A DNA stretch of 64,000 nucleotides from Alphaproteobacteria bacterium (GTDB lineage: Bacteria > Pseudomonadota > Alphaproteobacteria > Rhizobiales > Xanthobacteraceae): positions 5,282,001 to 5,346,000 of the forward strand of contig JBBCGH010000001.1 in assembly GCA_037200445.1 (NCBI GenBank), read 5' to 3'. Of the stretch, positions 31,296 to 46,472 are shown one piece after another. The notes beneath the pieces are model-generated. The model saw only the letters and a list, made by a program, of their open reading frames with translations, was not told the origin of the DNA and did no database searches. Numbering within the stretch: the first letter of the stretch is position 1; each line of letters opens with the position of its first letter. Both the position numbers and the translations under genes were made by a program.

Positions 31296-34200
31296 CTATT
31301 CGCCCTCCGAGAGAAGACTCGCGTTGCCGCCGGCCGCCGCAGTGTTGACCGTCACCGTCTGCTCAGTGGCAAAGCGTCGCAGGTAGTCGGGCCGCCGGCC
31401 TTCGGCCCAGTGCCGGAGAGACCGCTGCCACCGAACGGCTGCGTGCCGACCACCGCGCCGATCATGTTGCGATTCACATAGACGTTGCCGTTGGCGAGCC
31501 GCTCGACGATGTGCGCGGCGGTCTGATCGATGCGCGAATGGATGCCCAGGGTCAGGCCGTAGCCATTGTGGGCGATGTCGTCGATGAGTTGATCGAGCGC
31601 ACCCGCGCGCCAACGCACCACATGCAGCACCGGACCGAACACCTCTTCGGTGAGGTTCCCGCGCCCGGTCGAGCGCAATGATGGCCGGCGCCACATAAAG
31701 GCCCGAGGCCGGCGCGCCGTCATGGCGGAAGCGCACGCGGCTCGCATGCGCCGCCACCCATTTGTCGAGTTTTTCCTTCGCGTCCGCGTCGATCACCGGG
31801 CCGACATGCGTCGCGATCTCGCGCGGGTCCCCGACCACGAGCGCGCGCGCGGCGCCCTCGATCATCTCCAGCATGCGGTCGGCGACATCCTCCTGCACGC
31901 ACAGGAGCCGCAGCGCCGAGCAGCGTTGCCCGGCGGAGCGGAACGCCGAGGTGATGACATCGTCGGTGACCTGCTCGGGTAACGCAGTCGCGTCCACGAT
32001 CATCGCATTGATGCCGCCGGTCTCGGCGATCAACGGCGACGATCGGCCCGTCCTTGCCGGCGAGCGAGCGGTTGATGAGGCGCGCGACCTCGGTCGAGCC
32101 GGTGAATGCGACGCCCGCGACGCGCGGGTCGGCGACGAGCGCGGCGCCCGCCCGCCCGTCGCCGAGAACAAGATGCAGTGCGTCTGCCGGGATGCCCGCC
32201 TCGTGCATCAGCGCGACGGCCGCCGCGCCCATCTGCGGCGTCTGCTCGGCGGGCTTGGCGATCACCGCATTGCCCACAACCAGCGCAGCGACAACCTGCC
32301 CTGTGAAGATCGCGAGCGGGAAGTTCCATGGGCTGATGCAGATGAACACGCCACGCCCGCGATGATGCAGTTCGTTGGTCTCGCCGGTCGGACCGGGCAT
32401 GCGCTTGGGCGTAAGCGTGCGGCGCGCCTCGCTGGCGTAGTAGCGGCAGAAATCGACCGCCTCGCGCACTTCGGCAAGCGCATCGTCGAGCGTCTTGCCG
32501 CCTTCCGACTGCAGCACGGCGATCAATGCGTCGCGATTGCGCTCATAGAGATCCGCGACGCGTTCGAGCGCGTCCGCGCGTTCGCCGACCGGCGTCGCAT
32601 TCCAGGCGGGGAAGCCCTGTGCGGCGCCGGCCAGCGCATCGGTGACCCTCTCGCCTTTTGCCTGCTTGAGCGGCGCCGCGTTTTTCACACCCGCGAGCAG
32701 CGTCTCGCGGCTTGCGCGGTCGCCGAACTCCACGCCGGCGGAATTCTTGCGCGTGCCATAAAGATCGCGCGGCAGCGGAATGCGCGGGTGCCGCGCATGG
32801 CTCGCATCGGCGATCCAGGCCTGCGGCCTTTTGAGGATTTCGGACACCGGCACCGCGGGGTCGGCCGCAACCGACACGAAGGACGAGTTTGCGCCGTTCT
32901 CCAGCAGGCGCCGCACCAGATAGGCGAGCAGGTCGCGGTGTCCGCCGACCGGCGCATAGACGCGACACGCGACACCTGTTTCGGCGATCAGCGTCCTCGT
33001 AGAGCGCCTCCCCCATGCCATGCAGGCGCTGGAATTCGTAGCCTTCGACACCGCCTGCTTCCTCGATCACGCTCGCGACGGTGAGGGCGTTGTGGGTGGC
33101 AAATTGCGGATAGAGATGCGGCCGCGCGGCGAGCAGCTTGGTGACGCACGCCATGTAGTTGAGGTCGGTCATCGCCTTGCGGGTGAACACCGGATAGTCG
33201 GGCAACCCCCGCTCCTGCGCGCGCTTCACCTCCGTGTCCCAGTAGGCGCCCTTCACCAGACGGACCATGAGCCGCCGGTCGAGTGCGCGCGCCGCATCGC
33301 GCGCCCAGTCGATCACCGCGCCCGCACGCTTCTGGTAGGCCTGGATCGCAAGCCCGAAGCCGTCCCAGCCGGCGAGTGATGAATCCGCAAGCACCTTGCC
33401 GATCACCTCGAGCGACAGTTCAAGACGGTCCGCCTCTTCGGCATCGACCGTGAAATTGAGATCGAGCGCCTTGGCGTGCCGGGCGAGTTCGAGCACGCGC
33501 GGCGTCAGTTCCTCGAGTACGCGTTCGCGCGAGATCGCCTCGTAACGTGGATGCAGCGCGGACAATTTCACCGAGATGCCGGGCCGGTCCGGCAGCCGCG
33601 CGTTGCCGGCGGTGAGCCCGATCGCCTGAATGGCGCGCGCGTAAGAGAGGAAATAGCGCTCTGCGTCGGGAGCGGTGCGCGCACCCTCGCCCAGCATGTC
33701 GTACGAATAGCGGAATTCGCCGTGATGGGCGGCGCGAGCCAGCGCCTCCTCGATGCTCTGGCCGAGCACGAAATGGGAGCCGAGGAGCCGCATCGCCTGG
33801 CGCGTGGCCGTGCGCACGGCGGGCAGGCCGAGCCTTTTGCCGAGGCTTTCGAGAATGTTTTCAGGCGTCTCGCCCGGCTGGATGATGCGCGCCGAAATAC
33901 CGAGCGCCCAGGCCGAGGCCGAGACGAGCAACGCGTGCGACTTCACCTCGTGGCGGGTCCAGTCGCCGGTCGCGAGCTTGTCCTCGATCAGCCGGTCGGC
34001 GGTCGCGGCATCCGGCACGCGCAGCAATGCTTCGGCGAGCACCATGAGGGCGAGGCCCTCACGGGTCGAGAGCGAATATTCGCGCAGGAAGTCTTCGATC
34101 CCGCCCAGTCCGCCCGACTCGGCACGGATCGCCGCGACGAGCCGGCTCGCCCGCGCATCGATGCGCGCTTCCGCGTCGCGACCGCGCGGCGCCTCGCGCA

Positions 34201-34300
34201 GCAGCGCGGCCGCAAGCGCCTCGTCGGGCGGCGCGTAGGGCGCCGCGAAGGCGGGCAGAAGGCCGGATTGCTCGGTTCTCCGCGCGGCCACCGGGCTCAT
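31296..34300 (-). pseudogene. putA: putA, bifunctional proline dehydrogenase/P5C dehydrogenase, with four frame breaks
   Basis: The gene encodes proline to glutamate conversion. From ATG 34300 (GGGAGGG six bases upstream) the proline dehydrogenase half is intact: FTVDAEEADRLELSLEVI, RLMVRLVKGAYWDTEVKRAQ, LHGMGEALYE. The aldehyde dehydrogenase half is preserved only in pieces in different frames: RVYAPVGGHRDLLAYLVRRL to VAFTGSTEVARLINRSLAGK; ETGGINAMIVDA with catalytic Cys in FRSAGQRCSALR; GNLTEEVFGPVLHV to GGSGLSGTGPKAGGP; then PDYLRRFATEQTVTV to the stop. Joins need one base removed near 32994, 32037 and 31661 and one added near 31391. The repaired length, about 1,001 residues, is normal for a short PutA without the DNA-binding domain. 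Real decay or local sequence error are both possible. Confidence 0.85.
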
Positions 34301-37318: not shown

Positions 37319-39121
37319 ATGAATTTCCTCAAGCTCTATACGCGCGTGCTGAGGCTGCTCGGGCCGGAAGCCCGGCTCGGCTGGATCCTCGCGATTGCCA
37401 ACGTCGCGCTCGCGGCGGCGCAGTTCGCCGAGCCCGTGCTGTTCGGCCGCATCATCGACGCGCTGGTGAAGACTCAAGGCACCAACGCGCCGCCCGACAC
37501 CGCCGCGCTGACCCCGCTGCTCGGCGCCTGGGTTGGGTTCGGCCTGTTCACCATCGTGTGCAGCGTGCTGGTCGCGCTCCACGCCGACCGGCTCTCGCAC
37601 CGCCGCCGCCAAGCCGTGCTCACCGACTATTTCGAGCACATCCTGCAGCTTCCCCTCTCCTTCCACGGCGGCACCCATTCGGGCCGCCTGATGAAGGTGA
37701 TGCTCACCGGCGTCGATGCACTGTGGGGTTTGTGGCTCTCGTTCTTCCGCGAGCATTTCGCGGCATTCATCGCGCTGTTCGTGCTGCTGCCGCTGTCGCT
37801 ATTCATCAACTGGCGGCTCGCCTCGCTGCTGGTGATCCTTTGCGTGGTGTTCACGGCGCTCACCGCGCTCGTCATCAACCGCACCGAGAAGCTGCAGAGC
37901 AAGGTCGAGGGACACTTCAGCAACCTGACCGAGCGCGCCTCCGACGCGGTGAGCAATGTCGCGCTGGTGCAGGGCTTCGCGCGCGTCGAGGCCGAGGTGA
38001 TGAGCCTGCGCGGCGAGGTCGGCCGCCTGCTCGCAGCGCAAATGCCGGTGCTCAACTGGTGGGCCGTAATCGCGGTGCTCACCCGCTCCGCCACCACGCT
38101 GACGATGCTCTCCATCTTCCTCGTCGGCATCTGGCTCAACGCGCAAAATCTCGCGACCATCGGCGAGATCGTCACCTTCATGAACTTCGCCGCCCTGCTG
38201 ATCATCCGCCTCGAGCAGGTGGTCGGCTTCTCCAACCGCGTGCTGATGGATGCGCCGCGGCTGCGCGAATTTTTCACCGTGCTCGACACCGAGCCCGCCG
38301 TGCGCGACCGCCCCAATGCGATCGACCCGGGCCGCATGAGTGGCCTGATCGAATTCAACGACGTGTCGTTCTCCTACGACGGCAAGCGCCCGGCGGTGGC
38401 GGACCTTTCCTTCACGGCCCTGCCGGGCGAGACCATCGCGCTGGTCGGCTCGACCGGCGCCGGCAAGTCGACCGCGCTCGCGCTGCTGCACCGCGCCTTC
38501 GATCCGCAGTCCGGTGCGATCAAGATCGACGGCATGGACATCCGCGCCATCAAGCTCTCCGCGCTGCGCCACAACATCGGCGTGGTCTATCAGGAGGCGC
38601 TGCTGTTCAACCGCTCGATCGCCGAGAACCTGCGCGTCGGCAATCCGAACGCAACCGATGCGCAATTGCTCGAGGCCGCCGAGCGCGCGCAGGCGACCGA
38701 GCTGATCCAGCGCCATCCCCAGGGGGTCGACGGGCTGGTGGGCGAGCGCGGCCGCTCGCTCTCGGGCGGCGAGCGGCAGCGCCTCTCGATTGCGCGCGCG
38801 CTGTTGAAGGACCCGCCGATCCTGATCCTCGACGAGGCGACGAGCTCGCTCGACGCCACCACCGAGCGCAAGGTGCAGGCCGCGCTCGACGAGGTGATGA
38901 GGGGCCGCACCACCTTCGTGATTGCGCACCGCCTCGCGACCATACGCAACGCGACGCGCATCCTGGTGTTCGATCAGGGCCGCGTCATCGAGTCCGGCAG
39001 CTTCGATGAATTGATCGCGCGCTCCGGGCGTTTCGCGGACCTCGCGCGCGCCCAATTCCTCACCGCCGAGCCTGCGCCCACCCTGCGCGAGACAGAGGCA
39101 ACGCCTGCGGCGGCCGAATGA
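37319..39121 (+). CDS. ndvA: Cyclic beta-1,2-glucan exporter, ABC transporter NdvA/ChvA
   Basis: A 600-residue fused ABC exporter: six membrane helices in the first 320 residues ([51 protein letters not shown]), then an ATPase with Walker [10 protein letters not shown], signature [16 protein letters not shown] and Walker [13 protein letters not shown]. The sequence follows rhizobial NdvA closely; in Sinorhizobium and Agrobacterium it exports cyclic beta-glucan to the periplasm. The glucan synthase ndvB is not in the window. The next gene, 39 bases on, is an acyl carrier protein. A general lipid-type exporter is the alternative. Confidence 0.88.
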
Positions 39122-39160
39122 TTTGACAATCGGGGTAGCGCCCCTATTGTCCCGGCCGCC

Positions 39161-39421
39161 ATGACAAAAGAAGAAATTTCCACCTTCTGCGTCGATCAGC
39201 TCGCCGAAATCCTGCGGATTCCGAAAGGTCAGATCGATGTCAACGCCAAGTTCGCCCGGCTCGGGCTGGACTCGGCGATGACCGTGTATCTCCTGATGGA
39301 GCTCGAGGACAAACTCAATCTCGAGCTCTCGCCGGAGACTTTCTACGACCATCCGACCGTCGATGCGCTGTCGGCACATCTCGCCGAGAAGCTGGCGGCG
39401 CAACCGGCTGCCGCTCGCTAA
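39161..39421 (+). CDS. Acyl carrier protein dedicated to the adjacent acyl-AMP ligase
   Basis: An 86-residue stand-alone carrier protein. The phosphopantetheine site is in ARLGLDSAMTVYLLMELED, with Ser in the DSA motif, in place of the DSL of housekeeping AcpP. The fold helices are clear and the tail is Ala-rich. DSA-type carriers are typical of specialised acyl or polyketide pathways. It lies 14 bases before the FAAL gene, so the ligase very likely charges this carrier. Confidence 0.88.
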   Translation: MTKEEISTFCVDQLAEILRIPKGQIDVNAKFARLGLDSAMTVYLLMELEDKLNLELSPETFYDHPTVDALSAHLAEKLAAQPAAAR

Positions 39422-39435
39422 AATCGATCTTCGCT

Positions 39436-41141
<1,706 letters not shown>

Positions 41142-41145
<4 letters not shown>

Positions 41146-42167
41146 AACTCGATCTTCGCGCCGCTGCCCACCCGGATGCTCTCCGCGATCCCGTGCTCTA
41201 TGCGGCGCGCGATCGGCGCGCGGTAGTGACCGAAGTCCATGAAGCTGGCGCGGTCGCGAGTGAGCGCATTGTCGACGCGATAGTCGATGAAATTGCTGTG
41301 CGGCCGGCCCGCAACGAGCTTGCGCAGCGCGGCGTCGCAGGCCTGCTCCTCGGCGGCCGCGAGGCTGCCGGGTCGCGGCAACATCGTGTAGTACGCGGGC
41401 GGCGCGAGCAGCACGATCGGCAGGTCGGCCGGGAGCTTCCTGATTGCCGCATCGAGCAGCGCAACGCCGGGAAAATCTTCGCTCACGTGCGCGGGCGCCG
41501 AGCCGCCGTCATCGCGCGGCACGATCACCGGCTGGAATTCGCGCGGACCGAGCGCCTCGTAGTCCCAGAAGCCGTCGGGCTCGCTGCGCTGGCGCACGCC
41601 TACTCCGACCAGAATACGCCGCCATGTCAGGGTGAGCGCCCGGGAGGAGAACAGCTTTCCGAGGAAATCGAGATCGCTCTCGCCATAGAGCCAGTACGGA
41701 AACGGATGCTGCTGCGGCAGCGCCGGATCGCGCGAGCACCAGCTCGCGTCGGTGACGATCACCAGCGCGCCGATTTTTGCGTGCTTGCGGACGAAATAGT
41801 CCAGAATGGCGAGTTGCTCGCGCGGGCCAGTGCCCGGCGTGGTGAGCTGCACGAAGCGCAGACCGGTCAGCCGCGAAAGCTCGCTCGGCTTGATCAGCTG
41901 TCCGGTCGAGTTGCCGATGATGGCGGAATCGAATTGCAGATCGCGCGCGCGGCTTGCATTCGCGGTGCGCGGGCTTGCGTCGTTCACGCCCTTGATGCCG
42001 GCGAGGCCGACGCGCCCGCTGTCATAAGGATCGACGATCAGCACCAGCGCCAGGATGGCCGCGGCGCCGAGCGCCAGCGCGGCAAGGAACACCGCAAGCC
42101 AGCGCCCCCACCCGGAGGCTTCGTTCGGCGCGACGACCGCCTCAGAACTGGAAATAGACGAACTCAT
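41142..42167 (-). CDS. Membrane-anchored SGNH/AlgX-like protein partnered with the MBOAT gene
   Basis: A 341-residue protein with an N-terminal cytoplasmic stretch, one membrane helix (WLAVFLAALALGAAAILALV) and a large periplasmic domain. SGNH-like landmarks are FDSAIIGNSTGQLIKP (near the nucleophile), LVIVTDASWCSRDP and near the C-terminus FMDFGHYRAPIARRIEHGI, a DxxH-like pair. This layout resembles AlgJ/AlgX/DltD-type partners of MBOAT acyltransferases in polysaccharide or teichoic acid acylation. ATG 42167 overlaps the end of the MBOAT gene by 26 bases, so the two are translationally coupled. Confidence 0.7.
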
Positions 42168-43518
42168 AGGCGTCTCTGTCGCCCAGTTCGACCAGCAGCG
42201 CAACCGCGACCAGCCCGAGCGCCGCGGCGAACACCGTGCGCGGGCGCTGATTGATCCACATCACGATGTCCTGGCTCGCCGGCAGCGCAACGGCAACAAA
42301 GCCCGACACGATGATCGGTGTTGCGACCTTGAGCAGATCGAGGTTCGGCAGAATCGCAAGCCCCTGATAGACGTGCCATGCGGCCTCGAGCGAGCCGGCG
42401 CGGAAGACAACGCCGAGCAGCAGCGAAAACACCATCGTGATCGCCCAGCCCGCGAGGGAGGGCATGCGCCAGCCGTAGCGGCGCCACAACGACACGGTCA
42501 CCACCGCGACGCCTTGCGCAGTACCCCACAGCACGAAGGTCCAGCTCGGCCCGTGCCACAGTCCGCACAGCGCCATCGTGAGGATCAGGGCGGCGAAATA
42601 TTGCAGCAGCCGGTGGCCGCGCCCGAAGCGCGCGTTGGCAAGCGGATGGAACAGATAATCGCGCAGGAACGTCATCAGCGTCATGTGCCAGCGCTGCCAG
42701 AGATCCTGCATGTTGGTCGAGCGGAACGGCGCATTGAAATTGTAGGGGAGCTGCACGCCGAACAGCAGCGCAAGCCCGATCGCGATGTCCGAGTAGCCGG
42801 CGAAATCGAACAGAATCTGGAAGATGAACCCGAGCGCGAGCCATGAGTCGCCGTGCGCCACCGGGCCGAGCTTCGCCTGCACATAGATCGGGTCGATGAC
42901 GTGTGCGATCGGATCGGCAAGCAGAGTCTTCTCGATCAGACCGATCACGATGAAGGTGACGCCGAGCGCGAACGAGCGCTGCCAGCCCGACGCGTAGACC
43001 TTAGCGCCGAACTGATGCATCACCTGCGACCAACGCGCCAGCGGGCCGGCGATCGCCTGCGGAAAGAAGCAGATGTAGAGCGCGTAGCGCAGGAGTTCGA
43101 ATTCGCCGGTCTTCCCGCGCTTGAGGTCAACCAGATACATGATGTGATGGAAGGTGAAGAACGAGATGCCGAGCGGCAGTACGATCGAAAACGGCCCGAC
43201 CGGGAGGCCGAAAGCCGTGACCGTCTCGGCGAAGAAGTTCATGTACTTGAAGAAGCCAAGCGCGGCGAGGTTTGCGACGATCGCCGCCGTGACGATGCCG
43301 CCCTGCTTCGTGGCAACGTAGTATTTCGCCGCGAACCAGTTGATCAGGATCGACAGCACCAGCAGCGGCACGAAGCGCACATCCCAGTAACCGTAGAAGA
43401 CGAGCGACAGGGCGATCAGCACCGGCATGCGCGCACGCGGGAACGGATCGGCAAGCGCATAGGTGATGAGCGCCGCGGGCAGAAAGACGAGCAGGAACGC
43501 GTAGCTGTTGAAGAGCAT
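42142..43518 (-). CDS. MBOAT-family membrane-bound O-acyltransferase
   Basis: A 458-residue polytopic enzyme of the AlgI/DltB type. It starts MLFNSYAFLLVFLPAALITY. Family landmarks are LPLGISFFTFHHIMYLVDLK, CFFPQAIAGPLARW, FDFAGYSDIAIGLALLFGV, FRSTNMQDLWQRWHMTLMTF and the catalytic histidine in LCGLWHGPSWTFVLWG. Such enzymes carry acyl groups across the membrane to sugars or proteins. I use ATG 43518; a longer form would add 21 non-conserved residues. Here the donor may be the acyl-ACP made by the neighbouring FAAL system, as DltB uses a charged carrier. Confidence 0.9.
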   Translation of the reverse strand: MLFNSYAFLLVFLPAALITYALADPFPRARMPVLIALSLVFYGYWDVRFVPLLVLSILINWFAAKYYVATKQGGIVTAAIVANLAALGFFKYMNFFAETVTAFGLPVGPFSIVLPLGISFFTFHHIMYLVDLKRGKTGEFELLRYALYICFFPQAIAGPLARWSQVMHQFGAKVYASGWQRSFALGVTFIVIGLIEKTLLADPIAHVIDPIYVQAKLGPVAHGDSWLALGFIFQILFDFAGYSDIAIGLALLFGVQLPYNFNAPFRSTNMQDLWQRWHMTLMTFLRDYLFHPLANARFGRGHRLLQYFAALILTMALCGLWHGPSWTFVLWGTAQGVAVVTVSLWRRYGWRMPSLAGWAITMVFSLLLGVVFRAGSLEAAWHVYQGLAILPNLDLLKVATPIIVSGFVAVALPASQDIVMWINQRPRTVFAAALGLVAVALLVELGDRDAYEFVYFQF

Positions 43519-43564
43519 CAGGCGGCTTGCGAAAGGGGAAACCCGGACTACCCGGGTATCGGCA

Positions 43565-45148
43565 TCAGGCCGGGACGGCAACCCTTTCGAGCGGCCGCTG
43601 CGGCAGCACGGGGGCGGAGGCGGCGCCCAGCATCGGGTCCCAGAACTGGCCGCACTCGTACATAAAGCGGGCCTGCGCGTACTGGTACAGGTTCCCCATG
43701 ATGTAGGGCGTCGCGGCCGGATTCTGCGGGAACATTCTCACGATATTGCCGAGCATCGCCTTCTCGGCCGGCCCAAGCCGCGCGATGCTTCGGATCAGCG
43801 TCGCAGAATCCGCATAGACGGTTCGCATGTCCTGCCCGCTGCCTTCGGGCGGTTTCTGCTCGCGCCTGCTGCCGAACGTGGCGATCACCCTGGCGATACG
43901 CTCCTCGAACGCTTCGGGCCGGTAGAGCGAGTTGCACAGCCACTTCACGCCCTGCACCACCTCTTCCCGCGTCATCTGCTTGGGAACGATGTTCGAATGC
44001 CACGGCGCAGCGGTCGTGACAGACGAATTGTCGAACAGCCGTCCCTCCGCCGCGAGGCGCGCATGGAGCGGCGTCGCGTCGGGCGCAACCAGTGTCGCGA
44101 GACTGAAGATTGGAACCGGCGACGCCATCGCGAACGTGTACTGACGCTGGAAGATACTTGAATCGTCGCCGTCGAATCCGACGATCATGCCGCAGTCGAC
44201 CGAAATGCCGAAATCGACAAAGCGCTGGATTTCATCGACAAGGTTCTTCTTCAGATTCTGCCGTTTCTTGACCTCGCGCAGGCTCACCTCGTTCGGCGTC
44301 TCGATGCCGATGAACACGTGCGTCAACCCGGCATCGGCGCACATCCGCAGCAGTTCCTCGTCACCCGCCGCATCGATCGAGACCTGCGTGTTGAAGCGAA
44401 AGCGTCCGCCCGCGCGCTCGATGTTCCAGTCGCGCATAGCGGCGAGCAGGTTCTTGGCGTGTGCGCGATAAACCGTGAAATTGTCGTCTGCGATAAACGC
44501 AGAACGGTAGCCGAGGCGGTAGAGCTGATCGAGCTCGGCGATCACCTGATCGACCGGTTTGTGGCGCTGCTTGCGCCCGAGATACTGGATCACGTCGCAG
44601 AATTCGCATTCGAACGGACACCCGCGCGAGGTCTGCACCGCGCCCATGATGGCGCGATCGTTACGATAGAGGTCCCAGCGCGGCATCGGCGAGGTGCGCA
44701 GATCCGGCCGCGTGCCGACATATTCGTCGTCCCAGCCCCCGCTGCGCAGATCGGAGAAAATCTTCGGCGCAATCTCCTCCATCTCGCCGCGGATGAGAAT
44801 GTCGCAATGCGGACGCACGACCTCGGGACTGAGCGATGCGTACGGTCCGCCGATCACGACCGTCTTGCCGCGCCGGCGGAATTCACCGGCGATGCTTTTC
44901 ATCCGATGCCACTGGCTCACCTTGCCGGTGATGCCGATGAAATCGGCATCAGAATCGAAATTTACCGCTGAGACGTTCTCGTCGCAGAGTTCGAGGCCGA
45001 AATCTTCAGGGGCCAATCCCGCAACGGTCGCAATCGCCAGGTCCGCGATCGCGATCGCGGCCGGCAGGCCACGCGCCGCGAACACTTCCGAGCTGAAATA
45101 GCTCGGCATGTCGGCAACCGGATTGATCAGGTAGATCGATTTCCCCAC
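43565..45148 (-). CDS. B12-binding-domain radical SAM protein
   Basis: A 527-residue enzyme. The N-terminal cobalamin-binding-type fold (IYLINPVADMP, ADFIGITGKVSQWHRM, VVIGGPYASLSPEVVRPHCD) precedes the radical SAM barrel with the cluster motif Cys177-x3-Cys181-x2-Cys184 (RGCPFECEFCDV). The C-terminal part resembles the DUF4070 region of this family. Class B enzymes methylate or rearrange unreactive carbons, including lipids such as hopanoids. The start is GTG 45148. It lies about 47 bases upstream of the MBOAT gene on the same strand, so it probably belongs to that operon. Substrate unknown. Confidence 0.85.
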   Translation of the reverse strand: MGKSIYLINPVADMPSYFSSEVFAARGLPAAIAIADLAIATVAGLAPEDFGLELCDENVSAVNFDSDADFIGITGKVSQWHRMKSIAGEFRRRGKTVVIGGPYASLSPEVVRPHCDILIRGEMEEIAPKIFSDLRSGGWDDEYVGTRPDLRTSPMPRWDLYRNDRAIMGAVQTSRGCPFECEFCDVIQYLGRKQRHKPVDQVIAELDQLYRLGYRSAFIADDNFTVYRAHAKNLLAAMRDWNIERAGGRFRFNTQVSIDAAGDEELLRMCADAGLTHVFIGIETPNEVSLREVKKRQNLKKNLVDEIQRFVDFGISVDCGMIVGFDGDDSSIFQRQYTFAMASPVPIFSLATLVAPDATPLHARLAAEGRLFDNSSVTTAAPWHSNIVPKQMTREEVVQGVKWLCNSLYRPEAFEERIARVIATFGSRREQKPPEGSGQDMRTVYADSATLIRSIARLGPAEKAMLGNIVRMFPQNPAATPYIMGNLYQYAQARFMYECGQFWDPMLGAASAPVLPQRPLERVAVPA

Positions 45149-45218
45149 GCCCGCGGTTCCCCCTCAGCGGACGATCTTATAGTGACGTAAGGCGACCGAG
45201 TCGAGAAACCCACGTGCG

Positions 45219-45244
45219 GGTAGTGTCCTAATCAGGACACTACC
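45219..45244. repeat. Perfect TAGTGTCC palindrome
   Basis: GGTAGTGTCCT (45219-45229), loop AATC, AGGACACTACC (45234-45244): a perfect 11-base stem between the radical SAM and thiolase genes. The CTAGTGTCC-like end also starts the long hairpin at 49242, which suggests a related repeat family. No T-run follows on either side. Confidence 0.7.
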
Positions 45245-45303
45245 AACCTACGCAAAAGGATGACAAATCCGCGCGGGAACTCAAGAAATCAGCCTGGAAG
45301 GTC

Positions 45304-46472
45304 CCTATTTGATGCGTTCGAGCACGCTCACGTAGTTGGCAACCGCGGCGCCGCCCATGTTGAAGATGCCGCCGAGTTCCGCGTTCGGGACCTGGATGTC
45401 GCCTGCCACACCGCAAAGCTGCATCGCCGAGAGCGCGTGCATCGATACGCCGGTGGCGCCGAATCGGATGGCCCTTGGACTTGAGCCCGCCCGACGGATT
45501 GACCGGCAGCTTGCCGCCCTTCTGCGTCGTGCCCTCCGCGATGGCGCGTGCGCCCTGCCCTTCCGGCACGAGGCCCATCGCCTCGTATTCGATCAGCTCG
45601 GCGATGGTGAAGCAGTCGTGCGTCTCGACGAACGAGAGATCGGTGAGCGCGATGCCGGCCTGCGCGAGTGCGCGAGCCCAAGCCTGCGTGCAGCCCTCGA
45701 ATTTCAGAATGTCGCGCTTGGCCATCGGCAGGAAATCCGAGACATGCTGCGCGGCGCGGAACGCGACCGCCTTGTTCATCTTCAGCGCGGTCTCGACGTC
45801 GGCGAGCACCACGGCGGCCGCGCCATCTGACACAAGCGAGCAGTCGGTGCGCTTCAAGGGGCCCGCGACGAACGGGTTCTTCTCGCTCTCGCGGCGGCAG
45901 AACTCAAACCCCAAGTCCTTGCGCAGCTGCGCATAAGGATTGCCGACGCCGTTCTTGTGGTTCTTCGCCGCGATCATCGCAAGCGCATCGGACTGATCGC
46001 CGTACTTCTGGAAGTAGGCGTTCGCGATCTTGCCGAAGATGCCGGCGAAGCCGCCCTCGATGTTCGCCTCGTCCTTCACGTAGGACGCCTTGAGCAGATT
46101 GCGGCCGATCTCGGGTCCCGGCGTCGTGGTCATCTGCTCGACGCCGACGACGAGGACGATGCGCGCGGCTTTGGCTTCGAGCGCGCGCAGACCCTGGTGG
46201 ATCGCGGCCGACCCGGTCGCGCACGCGTTCTCGACGCGCGTGGCGCGCTTGAAGCGCAGATCGGGCGAGGCCTGCAGCACCAGCGAAGCGGTAAAATCTT
46301 GCTGCGAGAACCCGGCGTTGAAGTGCCCGAGCACGATCTCATCCACATCGGAGGGCGCAATCCGGGCATCCGCAATCGCATCCGTGGCAACACGTACGAT
46401 CAGGCTCTCGACCGACTCGGTATCGAGCCGTCCGAACGGCGTGTGCGCCCAGCCCACGATGCAGCCGGTCAT
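45304..46472 (-). pseudogene. Thiolase/SCP2-type acetyl-CoA acyltransferase with one frame break near the C-terminus
   Basis: From ATG 46472 (AAGGAGG six bases upstream) the frame encodes a thiolase: nucleophile Cys84 in RVENACATGSAAIHQG, TDCSLVSDGAAAVVLAD and the catalytic histidine in VETHDCFTIAE. At KGHPI the frame is lost, and the direct reading ends at 45240 in unrelated residues. Removing one base near 45461 restores KGHPIGATGVSMHALSAM, then QVPNAELGGIFNMGGAAVAN, with a stop at 45304. The repaired protein has about 389 residues, normal for this family. It would cleave or form a beta-ketoacyl-CoA. A sequencing error is as likely as a true mutation. Confidence 0.82.

What the first reader, a model, noticed from the sequence alone, without database searches (positions are those of the whole stretch)
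37319..45148. Candidate acyl-decoration system: NdvA exporter, dedicated ACP, fatty acyl-AMP ligase, MBOAT, SGNH-like partner and B12 radical SAM protein
Seen: ndvA, an ACP (DSA site) and a FAAL on one strand; radical SAM, MBOAT and an SGNH-like membrane protein on the other, all within 8 kb, with ACP-FAAL 14 bases apart and MBOAT-SGNH overlapping by 26 bases. Known: FAALs load carrier proteins; DltB-type MBOATs use a charged carrier as donor; AlgX/DltD-like SGNH proteins finish acyl transfer outside the membrane; NdvA exports cyclic glucan. Inference: a fatty acid is activated, loaded on the ACP, perhaps modified by the radical SAM protein, then transferred by MBOAT/SGNH to an exported glycan or lipid. 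I know of no described system with this exact set.
Basis: partly seen in the sequence, partly recalled or inferred. Interest (0 to 1): 0.75.

Follow-up and report, generated by a model that had tools for sequence, protein, structure and literature searches.

The report
Fatty-acyl relative of the Dlt system
Four neighbouring genes in this bacterium, also found together in some Bradyrhizobium strains, look like a machine that loads a fatty acid onto a small carrier protein, passes it through the inner membrane and attaches it to something outside, a fatty version of a machine known for the amino acid D-alanine.

Summary
The conserved core is ACP-FAAL converging on MBOAT-SGNH: in the window, its sister genome G012, and 18 of 136 Bradyrhizobium-genus genomes, all 18 with all four genes in the same layout. 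NdvA is a bystander: it faces the thiolase gene directly in at least 38 of 149 family genomes, and the module lies between those two genes in the window's genus. The radical SAM gene was found beside the module only in the window's genus (2 genomes). In Bradyrhizobium a fatty-acid desaturase fills its place, directly upstream of MBOAT, in 18 of 18, which points to a fatty acyl cargo. FAAL-linked MBOATs form one clade and lack a P[LFM]GG motif (0 of 25, against 25 of 26 readable unlinked ones) in the segment where DltB docks its carrier. Best reading: a carrier-fed, Dlt-like fatty-acyl export and transfer system in Gram-negative bacteria. Acceptor unknown; SGNH fold likely but unproven; enzyme steps inferred. 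Seven literature searches aimed at the combination found no description.

The parts
39161..39421 (+). Dedicated acyl carrier protein (core)
   Evidence: PF00550 7.6e-17; Ser38 of the DSA site invariant in 11 of 11; present in 18 of 18 Bradyrhizobium-genus module loci.
39436..41145 (+). Fatty acyl-AMP ligase (core)
   Evidence: AMP-binding and DIP2-like AMP domain; FadD23/FadD32/FadD28 among best structure-database matches; 17 module FAALs form one clade, 100/99.
41142..42167 (-). SGNH-like membrane-anchored protein, presumed extracytoplasmic acyltransferase (core)
   Evidence: Ser87, Asp311, His314 invariant in 23 of 23 homologues; predicted N-terminal helix 18-45 in a pLDDT 62 model; no significant structure match, only weak SGNH/GDSL family hits.
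42142..43518 (-). DltB-like MBOAT ending in FVYFQF (core)
   Evidence: PF03062; the only solved relatives found are DltB entries; His322 and the FxYxxF end conserved in 8 of 8; in the FAAL-linked clade, 97/99.
43565..45148 (-). B12-type radical SAM protein, candidate acyl-chain editor (window's genus only)
   Evidence: PF04055, DUF4070; G012 has it at 75%, next best family match 39% in G002; sits where Bradyrhizobium has a desaturase. Role inferred.
37319..39121 (+). ndvA, flanking bystander, not part of the module
   Evidence: 0 of 18 Bradyrhizobium module loci hold an ndvA orthologue (two show ABC hits of 65-69 bits only); ndvA and thiolase are convergent neighbours without the module between them in at least 38 of 149 family genomes.
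45240..46472 (-). Thiolase-domain gene, the other border of the insertion site, not part of the module
   Evidence: NF005704 583 bits vs cut-off 412; neighbour of ndvA in relatives.

Best explanation
A carrier-fed surface acylation system built like Dlt, but for a fatty acyl group. FAAL makes acyl-AMP and loads it on the dedicated ACP (inferred from family). The chain may be edited: by a desaturase in Bradyrhizobium, perhaps by the B12 radical SAM protein in the window's genus (inferred). The MBOAT accepts acyl-ACP from the cytoplasm and moves the acyl group to the tyrosine of its C-terminal FVYFQF motif at the periplasmic face (inferred from PatA and DltB/DltX). The SGNH-like protein takes it onto its serine and transfers it to a hydroxyl of an extracytoplasmic glycan or lipid (inferred; acceptor unknown). 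Shown here: conserved four-gene linkage, conserved catalytic-type residues, a separate clade of FAAL-linked MBOATs, the desaturase/rSAM exchange, and NdvA as a bystander.
For: Four genes together in 18 of 18 Bradyrhizobium-genus loci, in the window and in G012. Desaturase (PF00487, 4.4e-22) directly upstream of MBOAT in 18 of 18. ACP-FAAL beside another MBOAT in G146 and G116. DltB is the only solved relative found for the MBOAT. FxYxxF ends 24 of 25 FAAL-linked MBOATs; passages of PMC12148441 describe it as the acyl shuttle. FAAL-linked MBOATs are one clade (97/99) and lack P[LFM]GG in the segment where DltB docks its carrier: 0 of 25 vs 25 of 26 readable unlinked. Ser, Asp, His invariant in 23 of 23 SGNH homologues.
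Against: No enzyme step was tested. The FxYxxF end is not specific: 28 of 28 complete unlinked MBOATs have it too. The loss of P[LFM]GG may be one inherited change, and DltB's own carrier-docking residues are not conserved here. The SGNH fold is unproven. The MBOAT of G116 lacks the shuttle motif as read. The close SGNH family's nearest relatives (G042, G004, G014) sit with MBOATs of the P[LFM]GG type and no FAAL, so the SGNH protein alone does not mark carrier use. No acceptor gene travels with the module.
Confidence: 0.65

Rival explanations
1. An ordinary MBOAT-SGNH pair that uses acyl-CoA (O-acetylation of a glycan), with an ACP-FAAL pair of separate function as its neighbour.
For: The C-terminal motif and SGNH partner are those of acyl-CoA-type pairs, and the nearest SGNH relatives have no FAAL beside them. 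The two gene pairs are convergent, not one operon.
Against: Linkage of the two pairs in 20 of 20 genomes with the close SGNH, a second FAAL-MBOAT pairing in G146 and G116, and a separate MBOAT clade that follows FAAL linkage.
Confidence: 0.12
2. A small-molecule pathway: FAAL, ACP and desaturase make an unsaturated or alkynyl acyl chain (JamABC-like), and MBOAT-SGNH releases or tailors a secreted lipid rather than decorating an envelope polymer.
For: FAAL, ACP and desaturase are the three members of the alkyne cassette as described in passages of PMC8406139; all three are in 18 of 18 Bradyrhizobium loci.
Against: No PKS or NRPS was recognised in the window locus. Of the Bradyrhizobium neighbours only a few were domain-searched, so such genes there are not excluded. 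Relatives of this FAAL pair with envelope-type acyltransferases.
Confidence: 0.12
3. The ligase loads a non-fatty acid (amino or short hydroxy acid), making this a Gram-negative Dlt in the narrow sense.
For: DltB-like MBOAT and a carrier protein.
Against: The ligase falls with FAALs, and a fatty-acid desaturase lies in the module in Bradyrhizobium.
Confidence: 0.07
4. One reading: NdvA exports a cyclic glucan that this module acylates.
For: ndvA is next to ACP on the same strand in the window and in G012.
Against: ndvA (62% identity or better) occurs in 137 of 149 family genomes, most without this FAAL, and borders the thiolase gene without the module between them in at least 38, including same-genus G056; no ndvA orthologue lies in any of the 18 Bradyrhizobium module loci.
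Confidence: 0.04

Closest known systems
Dlt system (DltA, DltB, DltC, DltD, DltX; D-alanylation of teichoic acids)
   Same: Ligase, carrier protein, MBOAT and a presumed SGNH-type partner; the MBOAT's only solved relatives found are DltB.
   Different: Ligase of the FAAL type; shuttle motif at the end of the MBOAT itself instead of on a DltX microprotein; MBOAT below the curated DltB cut-off; Gram-negative; a desaturase or radical SAM gene in the locus.
PatA-PatB and other Gram-negative MBOAT-SGNH acyltransferases
   Same: MBOAT with C-terminal FxYxxF and a partner gene downstream (mechanism from passages of PMC12148441).
   Different: PMC12148441 says the other MBOAT-SGNH pathways lack a carrier protein; here ACP and FAAL are linked, and the MBOAT clade lacks P[LFM]GG.
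JamABC alkyne cassette (FAAL, desaturase, ACP)
   Same: FAAL, ACP and a desaturase together in Bradyrhizobium; cassette described in passages of PMC8406139.
   Different: MBOAT and SGNH are added; the window's genus has no such desaturase gene. Similarity to JamB itself was not tested.
ACP-FAAL with a WcbI-type protein (G013, G057, G081, MAG JOPF009)
   Same: Related FAALs beside a protein of a polysaccharide-biosynthesis family, PF18588.
   Different: No MBOAT or SGNH hit beside it.

Membership tests
Dlt system | MBOAT over the curated DltB cut-off | tested here: not met
   TIGR04091 169.5 bits, cut-off 375.
Dlt system | D-alanine ligase DltA | tested here: not met
   The ligase matches FAAL models and structures best; no D-alanine ligase model is among the 25 NCBIfam matches shown of 105.
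Dlt system | Carrier protein linked to ligase and MBOAT | tested here: met
   ACP beside FAAL and near MBOAT in the window, G012 and 18 of 18 Bradyrhizobium loci.
Dlt system | Shuttle motif on a separate DltX microprotein | tested here: not met
   The motif is at the end of the MBOAT itself; no separate search for a microprotein was made.
MBOAT-SGNH acyltransferase pair | MBOAT with catalytic-type His and C-terminal FxYxxF | tested here: met
   His322 and the motif in 8 of 8; motif in 24 of 25 FAAL-linked MBOATs.
MBOAT-SGNH acyltransferase pair | Partner with SGNH fold and Ser/Asp/His triad | tested here: inconclusive
   Ser, Asp-x-x-His invariant in 23 of 23; fold not shown; weak family hits in 3 of 23 at most. 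Which residues are the Gly and Asn of SGNH was not settled.
Fatty acyl-AMP ligase (FAAL) | Closer to FAALs than to CoA ligases | tested here: met
   FadD23, FadD32, FadD28 at 313, 293, 236 bits; oxalate-CoA ligase 117; fatty acyl-AMP ligase models are among the top NCBIfam matches, each below its curated cut-off.
Fatty acyl-AMP ligase (FAAL) | Loads fatty acid on ACP without CoA | not testable with these tools
   Needs an enzyme assay.
JamABC alkyne cassette | FAAL, ACP and a JamB-type desaturase/acetylenase | not tested
   A desaturase is present in Bradyrhizobium (PF00487; DesA family model 95 bits, cut-off 400); no comparison with JamB was made. Absent from the window genome.
NdvA cyclic glucan pathway | ndvA travels with the acyl module | tested here: not met
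   0 of 18 Bradyrhizobium module loci; ndvA-thiolase neighbours without the module between them in at least 38 of 149.

The most novel reading that the evidence does not exclude
Gram-negative bacteria have a carrier-coupled lineage of MBOATs that exports custom-edited fatty acyl groups: an exchangeable editing enzyme (desaturase or acetylenase in Bradyrhizobium, B12 radical SAM enzyme in the window's genus) reworks the chain on the ACP, then MBOAT and SGNH put it on a surface polymer. In Bradyrhizobium the group could even be an alkyne, as in JamABC.
Probability: 0.22. Interest if true: 0.85.

Novelty: new variant of a known kind. Interest (0 to 1): 0.62.

Why it matters
Carrier-dependent surface acylation is best known from D-alanine in Gram-positive bacteria, and a recent account of MBOAT-SGNH pathways says that those other than Dlt lack a carrier protein (PMC12148441, passages read). 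A carrier-fed fatty-acyl branch in soil and root-nodule bacteria would add a new donor logic. It would give a natural experiment on how MBOATs choose between acyl-CoA and acyl-ACP, and point to an unknown hydrophobic decoration of the Bradyrhizobium envelope that can be tested by gene deletion and lipid or glycan analysis.

Tried and rejected
NdvA as a part: rejected on synteny. Radical SAM as a core part: rejected, as an orthologue beside the module was seen only in the window's genus. Its chemistry could not be assigned: each of the 25 NCBIfam models shown (of 26) is far below its cut-off, and the flank of its nearest relative in G002 (39%) was only listed as ORFs, without a domain search. 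AlgX-like SGNH: not supported by the motif order. Fold proof for SGNH: AlphaFold2 pLDDT 62; Foldseek best E 0.63, with PAF acetylhydrolase (1wab) third, not significant. MBOAT model: pLDDT 49, not used. PDB profile search for the SGNH family: nothing. DltB's docking residues: not conserved residue by residue; only the P[LFM]GG contrast stands, and it may be one inherited change. In one search, and for the desaturase, my query was out of frame; one search repeats the check in the right frame, and only that result is used.

Literature: ten searches were made; seven were aimed at the combination. FAAL with MBOAT: 0 papers. FAAL with membrane-bound O-acyltransferase: 0. DltB + SGNH + MBOAT + acyl carrier protein: 0. 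Bradyrhizobium + MBOAT + acyl carrier protein: one soybean-oil review, seen as a listing. Searches listed 4, 10 and 7 papers, none of which describes such a set by title and abstract start. The other three were for JamABC, DltX and a Gram-negative Dlt precedent. Only open-licence papers are held. Four papers were read as passages: PMC12148441, PMC8406139, PMC9487903, PMC11035591; the rest were seen as listings only.
Full report
What is there. rSAM, MBOAT and SGNH look like one operon (46-base gap, then a 26-base overlap); ACP and FAAL look like another (14-base gap); the two converge, with overlapping stop codons.

Which parts belong together. A search of 149 genomes of the same family gave SGNH matches in 12; five genomes (the window's own among them) had matches at 41% identity or more. 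The sister genome G012 keeps the whole arrangement, with one extra solute-binding-protein gene between SGNH and FAAL. G042, G004 and G014, with SGNH at 41-45%, show no FAAL orthologue in the stretches taken (G004 has only a 25% ligase hit). A FAAL scan of named genomes kept the best 80 of 576 confirmed places, and more existed. Six of the 80 are Bradyrhizobium orthologues (62-64% identity); 6 of 6 carry ACP, FAAL, SGNH and MBOAT in the same convergent layout, with no radical SAM match and only weak ABC hits (64 and 86 bits, in two loci) to ndvA. One further locus (L082) has ACP-FAAL beside a WcbI-type protein. The other 73 gave no MBOAT, SGNH, rSAM or WcbI match above 45 bits at E 1e-6.

Survey of one genus. 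Of 136 genomes of the genus g24, 64 have some match to the SGNH profile and 18 a strong one, 471 bits or more. g24 is Bradyrhizobium: three contigs have the same lengths as named Bradyrhizobium records. All 18 loci hold ACP, FAAL, SGNH and MBOAT; none holds the radical SAM gene or an ndvA orthologue (two show ABC hits of 65-69 bits). Some of the six named loci are among the 18, so the two counts are not independent. Across the class (385 genomes sampled) 22 genomes matched, but apart from the window's own protein (535 bits) no match passed 178 bits. In these searches the module is known only from this family.

The desaturase. In the Bradyrhizobium loci a gene with a PF00487 fatty-acid desaturase domain (4.4e-22) lies directly upstream of MBOAT on the same strand, where the window has the radical SAM gene. 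In the right reading frame it is found in 18 of 18 survey loci and 6 of 6 named loci; in L080 the contig end cuts it, and in L177 it reads in two frames. The genomes of the window and of G012 have no match to it at E 0.001; the third genus member, G056, which lacks the module, has one weak match (42 bits). A desaturase in the likely operon is the best evidence that the cargo is a fatty acyl chain. That the radical SAM protein edits the chain in its stead is inference.

NdvA is a bystander. A match to NdvA exists in 149 of 149 family genomes; by the per-genome table 137 have one at 62% identity or better, and 12 have only distant ABC relatives. In at least 38 of 149 it is the convergent neighbour (gap under 3 kb) of the thiolase gene that lies on the far side of the module in the window; in 32 of these the gap is under 600 bases. 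Such gaps leave no room for the module. In the window the gap is 6.3 kb and in G012 7.8 kb, filled by the module; in G056 it is 2.2 kb with two other ORFs, and the flanking genes match those of the window. The simplest reading is that the module entered an older ndvA-thiolase junction, so nearness to ndvA says nothing of function.

Recurrence with other partners. In G146, ACP, FAAL, another MBOAT (ending FIYFRF) and a protein with a GDSM-type motif by eye (no Pfam match) follow each other on one strand. In G116 the MBOAT lies divergently beside ACP-FAAL and is followed by a GDSL-type protein (PF13472, just over cut-off) and a glycosyltransferase-4 family gene. In G013, G057, G081 and L082 the FAAL stands beside a WcbI-type protein (PF18588 found in G081; homologues in the other three). 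In a tree of 49 FAALs (17 of the module, among them 9 of the 18 survey loci; 27 of the 73 other loci, chosen by me) the 17 form one clade (100/99), and the 22 that stand with an MBOAT or a WcbI-type protein form one clade (100/99). This lineage of FAALs thus keeps company with envelope-type acyltransferases.

MBOAT features. The motif FxYxxF ends 24 of 25 FAAL-linked MBOATs (not that of G116 as read), but also 28 of 28 complete unlinked ones, so it speaks for the mechanism class, not for the carrier. PMC12148441 (passages) describes it as the acyl shuttle whose tyrosine is acylated in PatA and DltX, and says that other MBOAT-SGNH pathways lack a carrier protein. In DltB the carrier docks on a horizontal helix after the first conserved histidine (PMC11035591, passages; alignment). 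In that segment most MBOATs have P[LFM]GG: 25 of 26 readable unlinked ones (four more were unreadable by my pattern; the F and M variants were counted by eye) and 0 of 25 linked ones. In a tree of 54 MBOATs the 25 linked ones form one clade, 97/99. This fits a change of donor from acyl-CoA to acyl-ACP, but it may be a single event, and the DltB docking residues themselves are not conserved.

SGNH features. Ser87, Asp311 and His314 are invariant in 23 of 23 homologues. The order Ser then Asp-x-x-His is the canonical one; PMC9487903 (passages) describes AlgX and AlgJ as permuted. Family scans gave only weak SGNH (2 of 23) and GDSL (1 of 23) hits, and the model (pLDDT 62) matched no structure significantly. 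SGNH is therefore likely, not shown.

Mechanism and status. Shown: linkage, layout, family assignment of FAAL, ACP and MBOAT, conservation of catalytic-type residues, the desaturase/rSAM exchange, the clades. Inferred: loading of this ACP by this FAAL, use of acyl-ACP by the MBOAT, the acyl-tyrosine step, transfer by the SGNH protein, and the fatty nature of the cargo. Unknown: the acceptor, the chain, the role of the radical SAM protein. It works like Dlt in outline but is not filed as a member: the curated DltB cut-off is not reached, and the ligase is of the FAAL type. I file it as a new variant of the MBOAT-SGNH kind.

Noticed in passing
window 37319-46472; L208 (G056), L209 (G080): The ndvA-thiolase junction looks like a place where genes come and go: two other ORFs in G056, five in G080 (8.8 kb gap), the acyl module in the window and G012.
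   Followed up: partly
window 31296-34300, - strand: A putA-like gene (proline dehydrogenase / P5C dehydrogenase, named from the reading of the ORF list only) seems broken over overlapping frames: 32543-34300, 31720-33051, 31296-32171. It could be a sequencing error.
   Followed up: no
window 45240-46472, - strand: The last part of the thiolase-domain ORF does not follow its family: the profile match ends at 338 of 389 and the match to G012 is in two pieces, as if frameshifted; cause unknown.
   Followed up: no
L065 8979-11422 (G000:C1 about 2.44 Mb): The window's genome has four MBOAT genes in all; one at 2.44 Mb has its own homologue of the SGNH protein next to it and the P[LFM]GG motif.
   Followed up: partly
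L062 8656-11423 (G004); L064 9328-12243 (G014): SGNH relatives without FAAL sit beside a carbamoyltransferase gene (PF02543, PF16861) with NUDIX and RNB-domain genes on the other side of the MBOAT.
   Followed up: no
L069 10126-13844; L070 6314-10016; L071 9110-12803; L082 887-5536: ACP-FAAL beside a WcbI-type polysaccharide-biosynthesis protein (PF18588) instead of an MBOAT: a second candidate carrier-fed acylation set.
   Followed up: partly
L068 7757-12568 (G146); L072 834-5770 (G116): ACP-FAAL with a different MBOAT and a GDSL-like protein; in G116 a glycosyltransferase-4 family gene follows, a hint at a polyprenyl-linked glycan as acceptor.
   Followed up: partly
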